Of a stretch of DNA of 20,505 nt, positions 4,376 to 15,367 are shown piece by piece. Each line of letters starts with the position of its first letter. Positions within the stretch are counted from its first letter, which is position 1. The DNA comes from a virus: IMG/VR virus record IMGVR_UViG_3300017977_000109, positions 1 through 20,505 of that record. One strand, written 5' to 3'. Position numbers and translations under genes: made by a program. Under the pieces are notes generated by a model that had not been told where the DNA came from, made no database searches, and worked only from the letters and a program-made list of their open reading frames with translations.

Positions 4376-5392
4376 TTAAATATAGTAGCGGATAACATAA
4401 TTGTCATTGCCGGACGTTGGATTCGCATTGAACGTGTTATCAAGATAGCCGAGGCCGTCTTTGTCCGAAAGCGTCGGAACTTTGTCGGGGGTCATAGTAG
4501 GCACGACAATCTCCCACTTCACTTTTCCGCTTGTCGGATCATTGGCATCAGAGAGATCATCACGATCTTTTGCACGCCATACCAGGGCTTTGGCCACACC
4601 GTCAAGAACATCATCGATGCTGTAAGGATTCTCGCTGTCAACATCTCCCTTGAGCGACACCGTCGGATAGAAGTTGGCAATATTAAAAGCATTGGTCTTG
4701 AAAGTACGGCGCTGCTTAATATCAGCACCCATATCAATACCGACTTCATCAATTTCAGACAGAGCCGCTGCAACTTGAGTCGCGCCAATCTTCACATGAC
4801 CATAAACATCGCTGTCATCAAGCATCGCTGATGGTGTCGGAGTGAGAAACGGCGGAGTAAAGGCTCCGTCATCAAGCGCATCAAAGGCAGCAGATATATC
4901 AAACTTCATCATGATCGGATCACCAACTTTGGCAAGCATCGAAAATTTGGCTTTACCACCGTGACCTTTAAACTTATTTTCAGTTCCTAAAATATCCACA
5001 GACATCGTTGCTGCATTGTTCGTTTGCGGAGCATACTCGTATCCGGCAATCGGCGTCGTATCATCCCCCGGTGTCTCATAGATCGGAGTACGACTGTGTC
5101 CGGAACATTGAAGCAAAATATCAACATCACTCCCATCAAAATTTACTACATCCAGAGGAAGCGGGGTGTCTAGTGAAAATTTCATAGAGCTCCAGGCGTT
5201 GAAGTGCTCAACCACCTTGTAGCCGCTGAAGGCAGCAATAGGGAAAAATTCACGTCGGCTCAATTCAATTGAGGGGATTTTAGGATCACCTTCGGCATAG
5301 ACTGTCACCCCTGTAGTGTCCATTGTCGCATCTGCGATTCGTGTATTTTCAGTCGTCTCTTTGAGGACTTTTACAACATATTTTACTTCCAT
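4376..5392 (-). CDS. Phage major tail tube protein
   Basis: This 338-residue protein is likely the main subunit of the tail tube. It is rich in beta-forming segments and Asp/Thr/Pro turns (for example T-T-G-V-T-V-Y-A near residue 30 and Y-P-T-V-S-L-K-G near 245), contains no predicted membrane segment, and sits just upstream of the chaperone and tape measure genes, the standard place for a tube gene. No sheath-like gene lies next to it, which favours a non-contractile tail. AGGA lies about 10 bases before the ATG at 5392, inside the end of the preceding gene; the intergenic gap is only 2 bases. I did not recognise a specific Pfam family, so the call is mainly by size, composition and synteny. 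Confidence 0.65.
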   Translation of the reverse strand: MEVKYVVKVLKETTENTRIADATMDTTGVTVYAEGDPKIPSIELSRREFFPIAAFSGYKVVEHFNAWSSMKFSLDTPLPLDVVNFDGSDVDILLQCSGHSRTPIYETPGDDTTPIAGYEYAPQTNNAATMSVDILGTENKFKGHGGKAKFSMLAKVGDPIMMKFDISAAFDALDDGAFTPPFLTPTPSAMLDDSDVYGHVKIGATQVAAALSEIDEVGIDMGADIKQRRTFKTNAFNIANFYPTVSLKGDVDSENPYSIDDVLDGVAKALVWRAKDRDDLSDANDPTSGKVKWEIVVPTMTPDKVPTLSDKDGLGYLDNTFNANPTSGNDNYVIRYYI

Positions 5393-5394
5393 CT

Positions 5395-5715
5395 CTAGTT
5401 TCCTTTTTGTAAAATTTTGAGCATGTCGCTCTGTGCTTTTTCGATATGGCCAAGCTTTCCGTCAATATTTTTGATCGTGATGTCAAACTCACGCCGACCG
5501 ACATAGCGGTCATCAGCATCGCGGTAGGTGATTTTTCCCATATGGGTTTTTTCAAGATCACCCACGCGAACATGAAGCTCTTCGTAATCTTTTGATGCAT
5601 TCGAAGCAGCAACTCTCGAAGCTACCACGATACTGGCGACTCCAGCTACAGCAATGATGACCTGTATGGCTACACCTGGTGGGATCTCCACAATGTTCTC
5701 CTCATAATTTTTCAT
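5395..5715 (-). CDS. Small membrane-anchored coiled-coil protein, function unknown
   Basis: The 106-residue product has a hydrophobic segment at about residues 14-36 (G-V-A-I-Q-V-I-I-A-V-A-G-V), followed by a polar helix with heptad-like spacing to the C-terminus. One membrane helix plus a cytoplasmic or periplasmic coiled coil is seen in XhlA-type holin-associated proteins, in i-spanins and in DUF2730 proteins of Mu-like phages; I cannot choose among them. It is the first gene of the leftward tail block and ends 2 bases before the tail tube gene. The ATG at 5715 has AGGA 10 bases upstream. A GTG at 5691 has a better GAGGAG 6 bases upstream and would give a 98-residue protein that still keeps the membrane segment. 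Confidence 0.55.
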   Translation of the reverse strand: MKNYEENIVEIPPGVAIQVIIAVAGVASIVVASRVAASNASKDYEELHVRVGDLEKTHMGKITYRDADDRYVGRREFDITIKNIDGKLGHIEKAQSDMLKILQKGN

Positions 5716-8895: not shown

Positions 8896-9380
8896 CCAAC
8901 GCACAGAAAAAGAGAGAGATTGCACGCGCACTGTATGTGTCAGGCAAAAGCCAGGAAGAGATAGCTGCGATTCTTGAAGTCGGTCTGCGAACCATTCAAA
9001 ACTACAAGTCAAAAGATGCTGCCGAGGGTAAGGACTGGGATCTGAAGCGAGCCGAGAAGCACATCTTGAAAGAGGGAGAGAGACGCGAGTATCTCTACAG
9101 TGACTTTATCGCTTACATGTATGACACTCTCAAGGAGATCCGCGAAGATGAGGCGATGCCCGCCGGAGAGAAAACCGACAAGATCGTCAAGCTCTCTGAT
9201 GCCTTCTCAAAGATGAAGACCATCGCACGCCATGAAGATCCTGAAGCGTACAAGCGCGGTGTGATCAAACATGTCATCAAAACACTGGGACTGGCTATCA
9301 AAGAGTATCATCCTGAGTTTCTGGAGAAATATATCGAGCTGACTGAGATGATTGAGGATGCGCTTGATGTCAATATTTGA
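8892..9380 (+). CDS. Small terminase-like protein (DUF1804 type, helix-turn-helix)
   Basis: The 162-residue protein has an N-terminal helix-turn-helix at about residues 20-45 (S-Q-E-E-I-A-A-I-L-E-V-G-L-R-T-I-Q-N-Y), followed by Lys/Glu-rich helices. It precedes the large terminase gene and overlaps it, so it most likely recognises phage DNA and brings it to the packaging motor. The pattern matches DUF1804 proteins of Mu-like prophages from memory. Mu's own gp27 is in a different family, so functional equivalence is an inference from position. Confidence 0.7.
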   Translation: MTNAQKKREIARALYVSGKSQEEIAAILEVGLRTIQNYKSKDAAEGKDWDLKRAEKHILKEGERREYLYSDFIAYMYDTLKEIREDEAMPAGEKTDKIVKLSDAFSKMKTIARHEDPEAYKRGVIKHVIKTLGLAIKEYHPEFLEKYIELTEMIEDALDVNI

Positions 9381-11097: not shown

Positions 11098-12482
11098 TGA
11101 GATTTAAAATACCCTTTTTTGCCAATAAAAAAACACCCGAGACCCGAACACATTCGGCTGCACCGATGAGTGATATTCTAACGGGTATCTTTACTAACTT
11201 GCCCGTACAACGAAGATGGCTTAAAGCGGATGCGATTGCACGCATTGAACGTGATGATCAAGTGATCTCATCACTGGGAAGCCGTAAAGCCGCTACTTTA
11301 AAAAAAGAGTTAATCATCACCTGTGACAATGAAGAGGTTACTAAAGCGTTGCGTTTTGCTCTGAGTCGGAACTTCTTGAATCAGCTGCTTGACACCCCCT
11401 TGCAGGGAATGGGTGTTTTTGAGCTCAATTGGGTTGAGTTTGACAGCGGCTACTGGACACCAACAGTCATTGAGCGCAACTATCGCGACTTTATCATTAA
11501 AGATTATGAGCTGCGCTATGATCCTGTAGGTTCCGGAGTCGGCGATGCGATCGCCCCTCATAAAGCACTCTATGCACTGCACAACCCAAAACATAATCGC
11601 CCTATGGGTACGGCACTGTATGATGCGCTCTACTGGCCGGTCAAACTCAAAGGGGCATCCTTGGAGTTCTGGCACAAGTTTCTGGAGAAATACGGAGTGC
11701 CCTGGGCGGTGGGGACAACTTTAGGAGATCGCGATGAGATGGCTAAAGAGCTTTATAATATGCTCTCTGGAGACGCGGCAGTCATTGAAAATGGAGATAC
11801 CATCGAAACCGTCGTCACTTCAAAAGTGGGTGATTTTGACAAATTAGCTGCCTACTGCGATACTCAGATCGCCAAAGTTATTCTTGGCGGCAATCTGACC
11901 AGTGAAGTCAAAGGCGGCTCTTTTGCTGCTGCAGAGACTCACAATGATATTCGTACCGATATCGCTATGACGGATGAGCATATTGTCACCCAAGCCATTA
12001 ATGATGTTTTAGAAGCTTTTAAAGCCATTAATGCTCTTGACATTGACATTACAGTAGCGCTCAAAGATAAAGATGATCCTAATACCCAACTAGCCGAACG
12101 TGATGCAAAGATCTCAAGTATGGGTTACACCCCTACGCAAGAGTATATTGAGAGTACTTACAATATCAAAGTCACGCCGACACCGACACTAAAAGCCAAC
12201 AGCTTCCGTGCAGGGAACCCTTTTGTATTTTCTAAAAAACCTCAAGACAGCATTGGCGCAGGTCTTGATGCCATAGACACCGACCCTGTTATGATGTCGC
12301 TGCAAAAACAGATGCTGCGTATCATCGAAGAGGCTGAGAGTTTTGAAGATGCTTTTAAGGCCATTGAAGAGGCCTATCCCGGCCTTGAGTTTGAGCAGCT
12401 TGAGGAGATGCTCTCCAGTGCAATGCTCAATGCTGACATCCTCGGATCTGCCGAGATCGAAGATGAAAACCCGGAGGGGTAA
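11097..12482 (+). CDS. Portal protein (DUF935, Mu gp29-like)
   Basis: The 461-residue product fits the DUF935 portal family, which forms the dodecameric DNA gate of the head. Typical features are an early R-x-W-L-K-A-D-A-I-A-R-I-E-R-D-D-Q-V segment, the G-M-G-V-F-E-L-N-W block at about residue 102, the W-P-V-K-L-K-G-A-S-L-E-F-W-H-K-F-L-E segment near 181-198, the Y-G-V-P-W-A-V-G motif, and Q-I-A-K-V-I-L-G-G-N-L-T-S-E. I chose the ATG at 11097 (TAATG overlap with the terminase stop); an earlier in-frame ATG at 10995 falls inside the terminase gene and lacks support. The last 90 residues are acidic and probably flexible. Confidence 0.87.
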   Translation: MRFKIPFFANKKTPETRTHSAAPMSDILTGIFTNLPVQRRWLKADAIARIERDDQVISSLGSRKAATLKKELIITCDNEEVTKALRFALSRNFLNQLLDTPLQGMGVFELNWVEFDSGYWTPTVIERNYRDFIIKDYELRYDPVGSGVGDAIAPHKALYALHNPKHNRPMGTALYDALYWPVKLKGASLEFWHKFLEKYGVPWAVGTTLGDRDEMAKELYNMLSGDAAVIENGDTIETVVTSKVGDFDKLAAYCDTQIAKVILGGNLTSEVKGGSFAAAETHNDIRTDIAMTDEHIVTQAINDVLEAFKAINALDIDITVALKDKDDPNTQLAERDAKISSMGYTPTQEYIESTYNIKVTPTPTLKANSFRAGNPFVFSKKPQDSIGAGLDAIDTDPVMMSLQKQMLRIIEEAESFEDAFKAIEEAYPGLEFEQLEEMLSSAMLNADILGSAEIEDENPEG

Positions 12483-12485
12483 GAG

Positions 12486-13781
12486 ATGATATCGATTGCA
12501 TGGGGTGAAACTCCCGAAAAAAATGTTGCCATACTGCGAGACAAAGGCTATAAGCTTAGTTTTTTCTATGATGAAGTGAGTTATGAAGCCCATCGGCGCG
12601 CTTTCACTGTAGCAAAAATGATGCGGATGGATCTACTGCAGGATATGCATGAAAGTCTTGTTAAGGCACAACAGAGCGGAGCAGGGTTTAAAGAGTGGAA
12701 AAAGAGCATTATTCCGACACTTCAAGCCAAAGGGTGGTGGGGAGAACGCGACATCGTCAACCCTGAAACGGGAGAGGTCAAGACGATCAACATCGGGAGT
12801 CGAAGACTGCGCACCATCTTTGATACCAATATGCGCATGAGCAGAGAAATTGCAAAATGCAGAGAGCAGATGCTACTGCCGGCAAGTACTTACTGGCGCT
12901 ATGTCTCAAAACTGCTGCCGACAACACGCGAAGCGCATAGGGCACGACACGGCGTGATCCTTCCTCGTGATCATCCCTGGTGGAAAACCAACCGTCCGCT
13001 CAACGGCTACGGATGCAAATGCAGCGTGACCGCGCACAGCAAAGCCCAGATCAAAAAACGCGGCTGGAAGATCAGCAAAGAAGCCCCTGAAGATATCTTT
13101 GACAAGGGGTGGGATCATAGCCCGTGTGAAGAGCAGAAGAATCTGACAAACGTATGGGACCAGAAAGCGCTGGAGGCTCCTGACTGGATCAAGCAGCGTG
13201 CGAGCAATGATATCGATGCGTTCAATCACATTGATGCTGCGTTTTCAGATGCACCAATAGAGGCGCGTGGCTACGTTATTGCAAACCTTCATAAAATGAC
13301 GTTTCGTGTTGACAATACGGTTAGAAACTCCCACTATCGAACATCGACTCGGGAAATGGTACTGCGCACCGATTCAAACATGGAAAGTCTCATTCATACC
13401 ATCCGTCATGAAACTGGCCATTTTGTCGATGACATCAACGGGTGGATATCCACAGATAACCGTTTCGCAACGCCACTATTGCAAGACATTCCATACCTGA
13501 AGCGGAACAAAAACAATATAGAAATAGCACTTCGAAAACGTGAAAACGTCATGCTTGACGATCTGTTTTATCTTGCTAGTGGTGGTACGATAGGTTTTGA
13601 AACAAGAGAAAACCTAGTCGAAACCCTAAAAGACAAAGGACTAGCAAAAGAGAGCTTTGCTGACATTTGGGCGCTCTATACATCCGATGAAAAAAGCTAT
13701 ACTGTTGTAAAGCAATACTTTCCAAAAACAGTTACGGCGTTTGAAAAATTGCTATTGGAAATATTTGGAGGTGGAGAATGA
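12486..13781 (+). CDS. MuF-type minor head protein with C-terminal metallopeptidase domain (putative toxin)
   Basis: The 431-residue protein appears to be a fusion. Residues 1 to about 238 are a phage Mu gpF/SPP1 gp7-like minor head domain, with the cysteine motif N-G-Y-G-C-K-C-S at 173-180 near its end. From about residue 242 the protein changes: H-E-T-G-H at 308-312 is a gluzincin-type HExxH zinc site, and K-E-S-F-A-D-I-W-A-L-Y (Glu389) could supply the third ligand, as in lethal-factor-like and similar peptidases. C-terminal toxin domains on gpF-type proteins define the MuF polymorphic toxins of temperate phages. DNA of this part is AT-richer than the first part (a 60-base line near 13081 has 50% GC, one near 13561 has 38%). 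The gene overlaps the next small ORF by ATGA. Toxicity and substrate are inferences. Confidence 0.8.
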   Translation: MISIAWGETPEKNVAILRDKGYKLSFFYDEVSYEAHRRAFTVAKMMRMDLLQDMHESLVKAQQSGAGFKEWKKSIIPTLQAKGWWGERDIVNPETGEVKTINIGSRRLRTIFDTNMRMSREIAKCREQMLLPASTYWRYVSKLLPTTREAHRARHGVILPRDHPWWKTNRPLNGYGCKCSVTAHSKAQIKKRGWKISKEAPEDIFDKGWDHSPCEEQKNLTNVWDQKALEAPDWIKQRASNDIDAFNHIDAAFSDAPIEARGYVIANLHKMTFRVDNTVRNSHYRTSTREMVLRTDSNMESLIHTIRHETGHFVDDINGWISTDNRFATPLLQDIPYLKRNKNNIEIALRKRENVMLDDLFYLASGGTIGFETRENLVETLKDKGLAKESFADIWALYTSDEKSYTVVKQYFPKTVTAFEKLLLEIFGGGE

Positions 13782-14050
13782 TGCCTGTTTATATCAGAGG
13801 CGCAGCAAAAGAGTATTTAGATATGTTTGGACGCGGAGATGAAACTAGAAATGTAGCAATACTAATACACGATCAGACTGGTGCCGATACGGAGAGACTT
13901 CTTAGAAGAGCTATTGATCGCGGTAGTCCTTTGAGTGATGATGAGATTGTTGATGATTTTCTTAATGGAGAACAAATAGTTTTTGATGATTTTATGAAGT
14001 GGTACCAAGAAGAGTTCTAGAAGCGTTTTTATATTCAATGCGAGCAATGA
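13199..14050 (+). repeat. 12-bp direct repeat pair bracketing the toxin cassette
   Basis: TGCGAGCAATGA occurs at 13199-13210 and again at 14039-14050. The distance is 840 bases, a multiple of three, and both copies read A-S-N in the gpF frame. The interval holds the metallopeptidase domain and the small downstream ORF. The second copy is followed by an in-frame tail ending at TAA 14088-14090. This looks like the footprint of cassette insertion or replacement within gpF. Confidence 0.75.
13778..14020 (+). CDS. Small acidic protein, putative immunity protein for the gpF-fused toxin
   Basis: The 80-residue product has about 18 acidic and 9 basic residues, no signal peptide and no membrane segment, as is common for toxin-neutralising partners. 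It starts at an ATG overlapping the gpF stop (ATGA), with GGTGGAG upstream, so the two are translationally coupled. No such gene is expected between gpF and gpG in Mu. It lies inside the interval bracketed by the 12-bp direct repeat, so it probably arrived together with the toxin domain. I recognise no family. The immunity role is inferred from position, size and charge; it could also be an unrelated accessory protein. Confidence 0.6.
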   Translation: MMPVYIRGAAKEYLDMFGRGDETRNVAILIHDQTGADTERLLRRAIDRGSPLSDDEIVDDFLNGEQIVFDDFMKWYQEEF

Positions 14051-14090
14051 GTCGATTAAAAAGCGTTTCGAGTTTTTAAACAGGAGTTAA
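14040..14090 (+). pseudogene. Displaced C-terminal end of the original gpF gene
   Basis: Reading from GCG at 14040 in the gpF frame gives A-S-N-E-S-I-K-K-R-F-E-F-L-N-R-S followed by TAA. The first three codons repeat those at 13200-13208 in gpF. The stop lies 22 bases before the gpG start, with GGAGG between, which is normal operon spacing. It has no start codon of its own. I interpret it as the old gene end, separated from its body when the toxin cassette entered, like the orphan tips of other polymorphic toxins. Confidence 0.6.
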
Positions 14091-14112
14091 ACACCCTGTA
14101 GGAGGTTTTATT

Positions 14113-14577
14113 GTGCAAGAGTCAGTGAAGATAGAAGGACTTGAAGAAGTAAAGCAGTTTTTTCAGGAACTTAATACAAAGATAGAGCACTCAAGAGGAC
14201 TCTATGCCGAAGCGGCCAATGTAGTGAAGAACGCTGTAGAGGATTCGTTTGCGAGTGAGAGCGACTACTACGGCAGACCGTGGCAACCACTTAAGCCAGA
14301 GACCATCAAACGCAAAGGCTCTTCAAAGATCTTGTACGAAGAAGGCAACTTGCAAGACAGTCTCTACTCACGCTCTACGCCTTTTGGTGCAGAGATTGGC
14401 ATCAGCGCCACAAGCAGGGGCTACTACTACCCGATGGTGCAGCAGTTTGGAAACAAGAAAGGCACACTGCCGGCACGACCATTCTTTCCGATTGATGAGA
14501 GTGGGAATGTTTTAGAGGGAATGGAGAAGGAGATTATGGAGGCCATCAGCGACGGGTTGGATGCGCTGATCGGGTAG
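14113..14577 (+). CDS. Phage virion morphogenesis protein (Mu gpG-like)
   Basis: The 154-residue product fits the phage virion morphogenesis family (P2 S/Mu G type), which completes the tail or head-tail joint. Typical features are the N-terminal helix, a Y-Y-G-R-P-W-Q-P-L-K-P-E-T-I-K-R-K-G block at about residues 52-69, L-Y-E-E-G-N-L-Q-D-S-L, Q-F-G-N-K-K-G near 112-118, and L-P-A-R-P-F-F-P-I-D near 119-128. It starts at a GTG with GGAGG 7 bases upstream. It is the last plus-strand gene; the following convergent gap (14578-14608) holds no hairpin I would call a terminator. Confidence 0.85.
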   Translation: MQESVKIEGLEEVKQFFQELNTKIEHSRGLYAEAANVVKNAVEDSFASESDYYGRPWQPLKPETIKRKGSSKILYEEGNLQDSLYSRSTPFGAEIGISATSRGYYYPMVQQFGNKKGTLPARPFFPIDESGNVLEGMEKEIMEAISDGLDALIG

Positions 14578-14608: not shown

Positions 14609-15367
14609 TTATAGTCTTTTTTCTAACTCTTTAAAGCGCTCAAGCAAGGCACTAGAGTCTTTTTCTAATGTTTGAACTTCAAAATCTAGCTGCTTGTCAA
14701 GCTCACCGCCAAGTAGATATTTTCCAAAACTTCCATCTCGGTTGTGTAGCGCAATCCATCCTGCACCTCTTCGTGTCCAAAACGACAGATGCCCTAATTC
14801 AACAAGATCGATGCCGGATTTGAAGTTATTTCTATAATATTTTTTGAGTACACGTAAGGTACTAGCACTTACGCCCATAGCCCGTGCCAATTCAGGGGTA
14901 GTAATTAAGAATCCGTGATTAATGTCAGCATAGGCCTTAGCATTAGCTCCATTGAATTTAATCAAAAACTCTTGATTGGGGTTGATGGCTCCGTACATTC
15001 TATAAAACGAAATAAGATCACGCTCATCAATTTGATTGTTGTAAAATGAATAGTTACCTGTTTTTCTGATGGAGGGCAAGACCTCTTTGGTTACCCATCT
15101 AGTGAAGCTTCTAGCCTCTGGTTTGCGGGAACTAAAAACCAACTCATAGAGTCCACTTTCACTGACAAAATTCATCTCTCTCTTTTGACCACCTGATGTC
15201 GCTTTAACCGACACCAGGTCTTCGCCGTCCAATTTACTAATTGCATCTCTTGAATTTGCAATATTTAAACATCCGCATACATCCTTGGCATTAAATAACG
15301 GCTCTCCATTATCATCTATTATACTTCTAACCTCTGTTTCATTAAAATTAAATGGAACTATATTCAC
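14609..15367 (-). CDS. BRO-type phage antirepressor
   Basis: The 252-residue protein has an N-terminal BRO-N domain at about residues 1-105, with the typical F-N-A-K-D-V-C-G-C-L-N-I-A-N-S-R-D-A-I, the L-Y-E-L-V-F-S-S-R-K-P-E-A segment and the F-x-R-W-V-T-K-E-V-L-P-S-I-R-K-T-G motif. A second DNA-binding part follows, with T-T-P-E-L-A-R-A-M-G-V-S-A-S-T-L-R near residues 155-171. Such proteins usually bind a phage repressor or DNA and promote induction or gene switching. It starts at a GTG with AAAGGAT 6 bases upstream, just after the 75-residue ORF. It is the last gene of the leftward early block and converges on gpG. Confidence 0.85.
   Translation of the reverse strand: MNIVPFNFNETEVRSIIDDNGEPLFNAKDVCGCLNIANSRDAISKLDGEDLVSVKATSGGQKREMNFVSESGLYELVFSSRKPEARSFTRWVTKEVLPSIRKTGNYSFYNNQIDERDLISFYRMYGAINPNQEFLIKFNGANAKAYADINHGFLITTPELARAMGVSASTLRVLKKYYRNNFKSGIDLVELGHLSFWTRRGAGWIALHNRDGSFGKYLLGGELDKQLDFEVQTLEKDSSALLERFKELEKRL

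What the first reader, a model, noticed from the sequence alone, without database searches (positions are those of the whole stretch)
13199..14090. In-frame 12-bp direct repeat and orphan gpF tail: footprint of toxin cassette exchange
TGCGAGCAATGA at 13199-13210 and 14039-14050 are exactly 840 bases apart, in the same frame. After the second copy the frame runs 13 codons to a TAA placed 22 bases before gpG. Joining the two copies gives a gpF ending ...R-A-S-N-E-S-I-K-K-R-F-E-F-L-N-R-S, a plausible toxin-less gpF of about 254 residues. The cassette could therefore be lost or swapped by recombination at this short repeat.
Basis: partly seen in the sequence, partly recalled or inferred. Interest (0 to 1): 0.8.

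Follow-up and report, generated by a model that had tools for sequence, protein, structure and literature searches.

The report
Phage toxin swap, repeat is incidental
A Mu-like phage carries a swappable toxin-and-immunity module on one of its head proteins; the short repeat beside it looks coincidental, but the phage's closest relative carries, in the same slot, an RNase-like toxin tip next to a tRNA-like RNA that may act as its antidote.

Summary
The 12-bp repeat, its frame and the 13-codon tail are real. The interpretation mostly fails. Sister phage L002 (88% identical gpF core, 77% gpG) carries a different tip in the same slot, so exchange is real. But homology to L002 stops at about 13,132 and resumes at about 14,018, so neither junction is at a repeat copy, and the left copy lies inside the toxin module (similarity to L026 starts 56 bp upstream of it). 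The 'orphan gpF tail' behaves as non-coding DNA: L002 has a stop in that frame, changes are not codon-like, no trace of the peptide above chance in 126 other gpF, and tip-less L101, L103 and L106 lack it.

The window holds a MuF-type polymorphic toxin with a putative HExxH metallopeptidase tip and a stop-overlapping 80-aa presumed immunity gene. In L002 and many RNase-type relatives the slot holds a structured RNA-like element on the opposite strand, often with promoter-like sequence; several are tRNA-like with compensatory changes. Tip-less gpF rarely have such a gap (2 of 27). Mu and two relatives lacking the aligned histidine segment lack it. An RNA antidote is the boldest reading not excluded; L002's slot also has a 57-aa ORF. 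Function is untested.

The parts
12486..13131 (+). gpF conserved core (Phage_Mu_F domain)
   Evidence: Pfam PF04233 E 1.2e-11; 88% identical to L002 over residues 1-210
13132..13143 (.). left junction of the exchanged module
   Evidence: blastn homology to L002 ends at 13132; similarity to the L026 tip starts at about 13143
13132..13781 (+). C-terminal tip of gpF: putative zinc metallopeptidase toxin
   Evidence: 68 of 213 aligned columns identical to the L026 tip, with invariant HETGH and a downstream E; no significant Pfam or PDB sequence match
13407..13421 (+). HETGH (HExxH) motif; possible third ligand Glu at 13650-13652
   Evidence: invariant between window and L026; meaning of the motif recalled
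13199..13210 (+). left copy of the 12-bp repeat, inside the toxin module
13778..14020 (+). 80-aa ORF overlapping the toxin stop codon, presumed immunity protein
   Evidence: L026 has an 85-aa ORF with a similar overlap
14018..14112 (.). conserved, apparently non-coding backbone DNA between the module and gpG
   Evidence: alignable with L002 and L020; non-coding change pattern in the tail part
14039..14050 (+). right copy of the 12-bp repeat, inside the conserved backbone DNA
   Evidence: 9 of 12 bases shared with L002
14049..14090 (+). 13-codon open stretch plus TAA ('orphan tail'), judged non-coding
   Evidence: TAG in the same frame of L002, 0 synonymous changes; peptide not found in other gpF
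14113..14577 (+). gpG (Phage_tail_S virion morphogenesis)
   Evidence: Pfam PF05069 E 1.5e-10; 77% identical to L002

Best explanation
The locus is a MuF-type polymorphic toxin of a Mu-like phage. The gpF head protein keeps a conserved core (12486 to about 13131) and carries a swappable module of about 0.89 kb (about 13132-14020). The module is a putative HExxH metallopeptidase tip plus a small overlapping gene, presumably its immunity protein. It is most likely exchanged by recombination in the flanking conserved DNA (gpF core on the left, the 14018-14112 intergenic block and gpG on the right), not at the 12-bp repeat, and the 'tail' is non-coding backbone DNA. Shown: positions, homology limits, a different tip in a sister phage, the non-coding change pattern of the tail. 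Inferred: toxin activity, immunity function, delivery with the virion, recombination route. In the sister phage the same slot carries an RNase-like tip plus an antisense tRNA-like element; no immunity ORF is conserved in that tip's family.
For: L002 has an 88% identical gpF core and 77% gpG but no tip similarity beyond a 10-residue local match, with homology limits at 13132 and 14018. L026 has a homologous tip (68 of 213 columns identical) with invariant HETGH and an 85-aa ORF overlapping the toxin stop. L002 and L149 cores are only 50% identical while their tips are 58% and their RNA elements 58 of 66 identical, so tip and element are shared across more distant cores. The tail DNA versus L002 has codon-position changes 1/4/2, 0 synonymous and 1 stop, against 18/16/97 with 81 synonymous codons in the gpF core. 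No tail peptide above chance in 126 gpF. The MuF family with small downstream ORFs is described in PMC5576092 (passages).
Against: Only one close relative (L002) fixes the junctions, with L020 as a more distant check. The metallopeptidase assignment rests on a motif shared by two sequences; the structure model was useless (mean pLDDT 36.0) and no convincing PDB sequence relative was found. Immunity function rests on position and size; the two ORFs share only a 22-residue N-terminal similarity (18 of 1000 shuffles reach it). The right repeat copy lies close to the right junction (21 bp), and a 12-bp word shared by these two particular regions arose in only 2 of 1000 simulated draws, so a minor past role of the repeat is not formally excluded.
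Confidence: 0.82

Rival explanations
1. The 12-bp repeat is the recombination site by which a cassette was inserted ahead of, and can be lost back to, an original gpF C-terminus.
For: Exact repeat, in frame, flanking most of the cassette; a 12-bp word shared by these two regions is rare in simulation (2 of 1000 draws, chosen after the fact).
Against: Junctions with L002 lie at neither copy; the left copy is inside the toxin module; the tail is interrupted in L002 and not found above chance in 126 other gpF; tip-less L101, L103 and L106 lack it.
Confidence: 0.04
2. The antisense element in L002 and relatives is not an antidote: it is an ordinary or decayed phage tRNA, or an antisense regulator or terminator for gpF-gpG.
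For: ARAGORN of 15 element-bearing loci as tRNA genes (L180, L189). With laxer filters the Rfam tRNA family scores L095 at 40 bits and the displaced L097 copy at 33.7, both above its gathering score of 29. The elements are antisense to the operon.
Against: None of 16 elements shows a 7-base anticodon loop in the predicted folds. Other tip families have differently built elements. A gap of 60 bp or more is absent in 25 of 27 tip-less gpF and in Mu, MuM16-1 and MP22, which lack the aligned histidine segment.
Confidence: 0.33
3. In L002 the immunity factor is a protein after all: the 57-aa ORF (TTG start) that overlaps the toxin stop, read through the tRNA-like element on the plus strand.
For: L002 has this ORF at 5254-5427; L020 has an 81-aa ORF in its gap; 24 of 61 long gaps hold a plus-strand ORF of 50 aa or more, against 8.1 expected from shuffled gaps.
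Against: L149, with the same tip and element family, has no such ORF (longest 18 aa). In gaps of 200 bp or less only 5 of 38 have one. The element keeps base pairs through compensatory changes, which coding does not explain. My view, recalled: such ORFs are typical accidental readings of tRNA-like DNA.
Confidence: 0.12
4. The conserved 14018-14112 block has a role of its own (operator, promoter region or terminator), which is why it is kept when the module changes.
For: Alignable in window, L002 and L020, next to the minus-strand -10 in L002.
Against: The scan of 13100-14250 finds no promoter-like or terminator-like site in this block; L026 has no room for the block, its ORF running into gpG.
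Confidence: 0.3

Closest known systems
MuF polymorphic toxins of temperate phages (Jamet 2017, PMC5576092; passages seen)
   Same: MuF-domain head protein with a variable C-terminal toxin domain and a small downstream ORF
   Different: A putative HExxH metallopeptidase tip; in the sister phage and many RNase-tip relatives an antisense structured element lies in the slot
PBECR / MuF_C RNase domains fused to MuF (Iyer 2017, PMC5512222; passages seen)
   Same: Relatives' tips match PBECR2 (L104 E 9.7e-17, L024 3.4e-10), with matches below the curated cut-off to PBECR3 or MuF_C in L002, L010, L050, L060, L095, L097; that paper calls the Mu domain inactive
   Different: The passages seen mention no RNA partner; the window's own tip is not PBECR; tips of L016, L052, L123 and L149 gave no PBECR or MuF_C match
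Type III toxin-antitoxin systems (ToxIN type; recalled)
   Same: RNase-like toxin next to a structured RNA proposed to neutralise it
   Different: Here the element is on the opposite strand, downstream, mostly single, and the toxin is the tip of a virion protein

Membership tests
MuF polymorphic toxin | N-terminal MuF (Phage_Mu_F) domain | tested here: met
   PF04233 E 1.2e-11, residues 53-181
MuF polymorphic toxin | encoded among phage head genes | tested here: met
   Portal_Mu, Phage_cap_E and Phage_tail_S nearby; the record is a virus record
MuF polymorphic toxin | C-terminal domain varies between close relatives | tested here: met
   window versus L002
MuF polymorphic toxin | small ORF directly downstream | tested here: met
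   80-aa ORF overlapping the stop; 85-aa in L026; protective function untested
MuF polymorphic toxin | C-terminal domain is toxic | not testable with these tools
   no experiment
Zinc metallopeptidase (zincin) | HExxH plus a third ligand | tested here: inconclusive
   HETGH and a downstream E invariant in 2 sequences; Pfam ATLF only E 0.028, 14.6 bits against a cut-off of 27.4; model pLDDT 36.0
Type III toxin-antitoxin (for the L002-type element) | RNA antitoxin of tandem repeats encoded upstream on the same strand (recalled definition) | tested here: not met
   the element is downstream and on the opposite strand
tRNA gene (for the L002-type element) | cloverleaf with a standard anticodon loop | tested here: inconclusive
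   cloverleaf-like consensus in L002, L020 and L149; no 7-base anticodon loop in predicted folds of 16 elements, yet ARAGORN finds one in L180 and L189, 2 of 15 element-bearing loci run, and Rfam tRNA scores L095 at 40 bits

The most novel reading that the evidence does not exclude
Mu-like phages protect their lysogens from the RNase tip of their own head protein with an RNA instead of an immunity protein: a promoter-driven structured RNA, often a tRNA mimic with an abnormal anticodon arm, encoded on the opposite strand right behind the toxin. Tip and RNA travel as a module. The window's phage carries a metallopeptidase plus immunity-protein module in the slot where its sister carries an RNase plus RNA-antidote module.
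Probability: 0.45. Interest if true: 0.9.

Novelty: new variant of a known kind. Interest (0 to 1): 0.6.

Why it matters
The window locus itself is a new member of a known toxin family with an unusual tip. The comparison that explains it exposes a recurring arrangement in Campylobacterota, Pasteurellaceae and some other bacteria: virion-borne RNase-type tips paired in position with antisense structured elements. Jamet et al. found small ORFs behind 89.4% of 191 MuF toxin genes (passage), leaving the rest without an obvious immunity factor. If the elements are RNA antidotes, polymorphic toxins would have an RNA-based form of immunity, and the tRNA-like ones would point to the likely target of the RNases. 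It is directly testable in laboratory E. coli.

Tried and rejected
Coding tail in relatives: the gap of L011 reads NESIKIFKEYKN in one frame (by eye), which looked like tail homology at first, but the tail peptide scores no better against 126 gpF than shuffled tails do (best 30, mean best of shuffles 27.7, 8 of 50 reach it; that test covers gpF after residue 200, not the gaps). I treat it as chance.

Structure prediction of the window tip (mean pLDDT 36.0) and of the L002 tip (35.8) was too poor to use; no fold search was run. PDB sequence search found two weak matches only (E 0.3 and 0.52). The tip and the immunity ORF have no match in 50,697 phage records (E limits 0.01 and 0.1), and no DNA of window 11091-15400 matches there. 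A search of 397 phylum genomes with the tip gave 12 weak matches (E 2.6e-4 to 9.6e-4), each in an open frame given as 511 aa, not followed up. Rfam with its fast filters listed only CRISPR repeats in 20 sources; with laxer filters on 10 sources the tRNA family matched L095 and the displaced L097 element above its gathering score. Literature searches showed no report of an RNA behind MuF toxins in the rows listed; this covers only the held open-access library. RNAalifold on the PBECR2-type set (5 sequences) gave 6 of 12 pairs with compensatory changes but an unfavourable covariation term, with L107 and L023 breaking several outer pairs; the L033/L126/L110 set is likewise mixed.

Results against the RNA reading: the model R1 missed gap elements that the simple scan had found in L096, L097, L052, L182, L190 and L043, all among its 100 sources. 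L024 and L138 (Vibrio) have a PBECR2-type tip with a 16-bp gap. L048 and L061 have long gaps but a Gly where others have the His. L085 and L091 are tip-less with long gaps. My first ORF count (48 of 61 gaps without an ATG ORF of 50 aa) missed starts that overlap the toxin stop and GTG/TTG starts; the corrected count is 37 of 61. Because L002's own slot turned out to hold such an ORF I lowered the probability of the novel case from 0.5 to 0.45, raised the 'not an antidote' rival from 0.30 to 0.33 and added a rival. Rows dropped before counts: L001 (the window's own copy); L046 (judged spurious) and duplicates L031, L180, L186, L193; L181 is not in the promoter count because the scan missed it. 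L175 and L176 were fetched and not used in counts.

Full report
1. Observation. The repeat TGCGAGCAATGA (13199-13210, 14039-14050), its 840-bp spacing, common frame and the 13-codon tail ending 22 bases before gpG are as described. The window holds 26 maximal direct repeats of at least 12 bp, 6 of them within 1 kb and 4 of those in frame; simulated windows average 17.2, 1.75 and 0.52. A 12-bp word shared by just these two regions is rarer (2 of 1000 draws, same call), but that test was chosen after seeing the repeat.

2. What the genes are. gpF carries Phage_Mu_F (E 1.2e-11); neighbours are Portal_Mu and Phage_tail_S, with Phage_cap_E further upstream. The record is a virus record of 20,505 bases. 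The C-terminal part of gpF has no significant Pfam match. L026 (Sulfurovaceae MAG) has a homologous tip, 68 of 213 aligned columns identical, with HETGH and a later Glu invariant, which suggests a zinc metallopeptidase. In the window an 80-aa ORF overlaps the toxin's stop codon; L026 has an 85-aa ORF in a similar arrangement, and the first 22 residues are weakly similar (18 of 1000 shuffles reach the score). A small ORF directly behind the toxin gene is the usual architecture of MuF polymorphic toxins (PMC5576092, passages).

3. The exchange is real, but not at the repeat. L002 (IMG/VR contig 3300027985_000820) has an 88% identical gpF core and 77% identical gpG, but an unrelated tip. DNA homology to L002 stops at 13132 and resumes at 14018 (alignments). 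The left repeat copy is 67 bp inside the exchanged segment; the right copy is 21 bp inside the conserved DNA and shares 9 of 12 bases with L002. The similarity of the window tip to L026 begins near 13143, upstream of the left copy. So the module spans about 13132-14020, and the left repeat copy belongs to the toxin module itself.

4. The tail is not gpF. Between window and L002 the 13 codons differ at codon positions 1/4/2 times, with 0 synonymous and 4 non-synonymous changes and one stop; the gpF core differs 18/16/97 with 81 synonymous codons. Tip-less relatives L101, L103 (235 aa) and L106 (214 aa) end without the tail and run almost directly into gpG. Against 126 gpF proteins (of 129 other than the window's; 3 too short after residue 200) the tail peptide scores as shuffled tails do. 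In L026 the small ORF runs into gpG with no room for such a block.

5. What occupies the slot elsewhere. I collected gpF loci from genomes, viral contigs and phage records (one search kept the best 80 of 96 candidates, and one search gave 30 loci although 55 of 298 genomes had a match): 130 distinct gpF, 92 with a recognisable gpG (one is the window's own copy, L001, and L076 falls between the two size classes). Of 27 tip-less gpF (under 275 aa) with gpG, 25 have a gap under 60 bp (median 2). Of 63 tip-bearing gpF (300 aa or more), 60 have a gap of at least 60 bp (median 146); the exceptions are Mu, L024 and L138. These rows are not phylogenetically independent. Counting L001, 61 long gaps: 37 hold no plus-strand ORF of 50 aa or more even when starts overlapping the toxin stop and GTG/TTG starts are allowed; 24 do, against 8.1 in shuffled gaps, mostly in gaps over 200 bp (5 of 38 shorter gaps). 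L002 itself has a 57-aa ORF of this kind, L020 one of 81 aa, L149 none above 18 aa. The extended -10 TGnTATAAT occurs on the minus strand of 23 of 61 gaps, on the plus strand of 0, against 0.5 expected from shuffles; plain TATAAT on 33 and 10, against 8.

6. The RNA-like elements. In L002, L020 and L149, which share a tip family, the minus strand of the gap has a cloverleaf-like consensus fold: all 21 pairs are kept in all three sequences, 6 with compensatory changes, while the D-loop is constant and the T-loop nearly so. A covariance model from these three, run on 100 chosen loci, gave 8 further matches with E below 0.1. Six of these lie in the gpF-gpG gap on the minus strand (L172, L179, L095, L016, L031, L123; L016 and L031 are near-identical). 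The others are L047, where ARAGORN calls a tRNA-Val, and L097 on the plus strand, see paragraph 8. The window has no match, and the gap elements of L096, L097, L052, L182, L190 and L043 were missed. A simple scan found tRNA-like elements on the minus strand of 21 of 140 stretches (duplicates included, one judged spurious), on the plus strand of 0, and 1.5 on average (at most 6) in 20 shuffles. Among 16 distinct elements the acceptor arms pair 7.8 of 8 within an element and 3.8 of 8 across elements; the scan required at least 7, so this is partly by selection. In Pasteurellaceae, 9 of 9 distinct elements have a TTGAC / TATAAT-like promoter (up to 2 mismatches in the second hexamer) upstream on the same strand (shuffles 2.8%; criterion chosen after seeing the sequences). 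Folded alone, the segment where the anticodon arm should be gives hairpin loops of 3-5 bases in 12 of 16 elements and no hairpin in 4 (in the whole-element folds L002 and L149 show a 6-base loop). ARAGORN nevertheless reads L180 as tRNA-Ile(TAT) and L189 as tRNA-Phe(AAA), so a 7-base loop is possible there. PBECR2- and PBECR3-type tips have other elements that are not tRNA-like, with mixed covariation support.

7. Link to the toxin. Tips in these loci match PBECR2 significantly in L104 and L024, and PBECR3 or MuF_C below the curated cut-off in several others; L016, L052, L123 and L149 gave no match to either. The L002/L149 tip profile matches a MuF_C-type profile with probability 75.7%. PMC5512222 (passages) describes these as predicted RNases and the Mu domain as inactive. 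In my alignments Mu, Shewanella phage MuM16-1 and Pseudomonas phage MP22 lack the LxHA segment, and their gpF and gpG nearly abut or overlap. So in these three cases absence of the presumed catalytic histidine goes with absence of the gap. Against a strict rule: L024 appears to keep the histidine (read by eye) and has a 16-bp gap, and L048 and L061 have Gly there but long gaps.

8. Reading. The window is one state of an exchangeable slot: metallopeptidase tip plus presumed protein immunity. Its sister is another state: RNase-like tip plus antisense tRNA-like element. An RNA antidote (decoy or inhibitor) would explain the association with tips, the promoter-like sequences, the tRNA mimicry and the absence with dead tips. 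A displaced second copy of such an element with a promoter-like sequence sits upstream of gpF in L097, reminiscent of orphan immunity genes. None of this is shown functionally, and no transcript was seen here.

Noticed in passing
L002 5263-5328 (minus), L020 4266-4331 (minus), L149 2752-2817 (minus): tRNA-like elements in the gpF-gpG gap with 21 of 21 pairs kept and 6 compensatory changes; see the report
   Followed up: yes
L097 2759-2838 (plus): A second, displaced tRNA-like element with a promoter-like sequence, apparently part of an inverted gpF-end/gpG-start fragment upstream of gpF in Bisgaardia hudsonensis: an orphan antidote candidate
   Followed up: partly
L097 4631-6570: A CRISPR array (Rfam CRISPR-DR34) directly downstream of a shortened gpG match, so the prophage there looks truncated
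   Followed up: no
L163, about 2740-2900: Two tRNA-like T-arms downstream of gpF in one Campylobacterota prophage; L014 also appears to hold several structured elements
   Followed up: no
L013, L039, L128 gpF-gpG gap: Gap of about 1 kb holding a 259-aa ORF in Helicobacter prophages, resembling PAPS-reductase-type proteins by eye (recalled, not tested)
   Followed up: no
L020 3631-4131: The RNase-like tip is interrupted by a stop while its tRNA-like element is intact
   Followed up: no
window 14609-15367 (minus): BRO-N domain gene (PF02498 E 4.9e-23) directly after gpG on the opposite strand
   Followed up: no
window 9316-9331 and 11677-11692: A 16-bp exact direct repeat, longer than the one in the finding
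   Followed up: no
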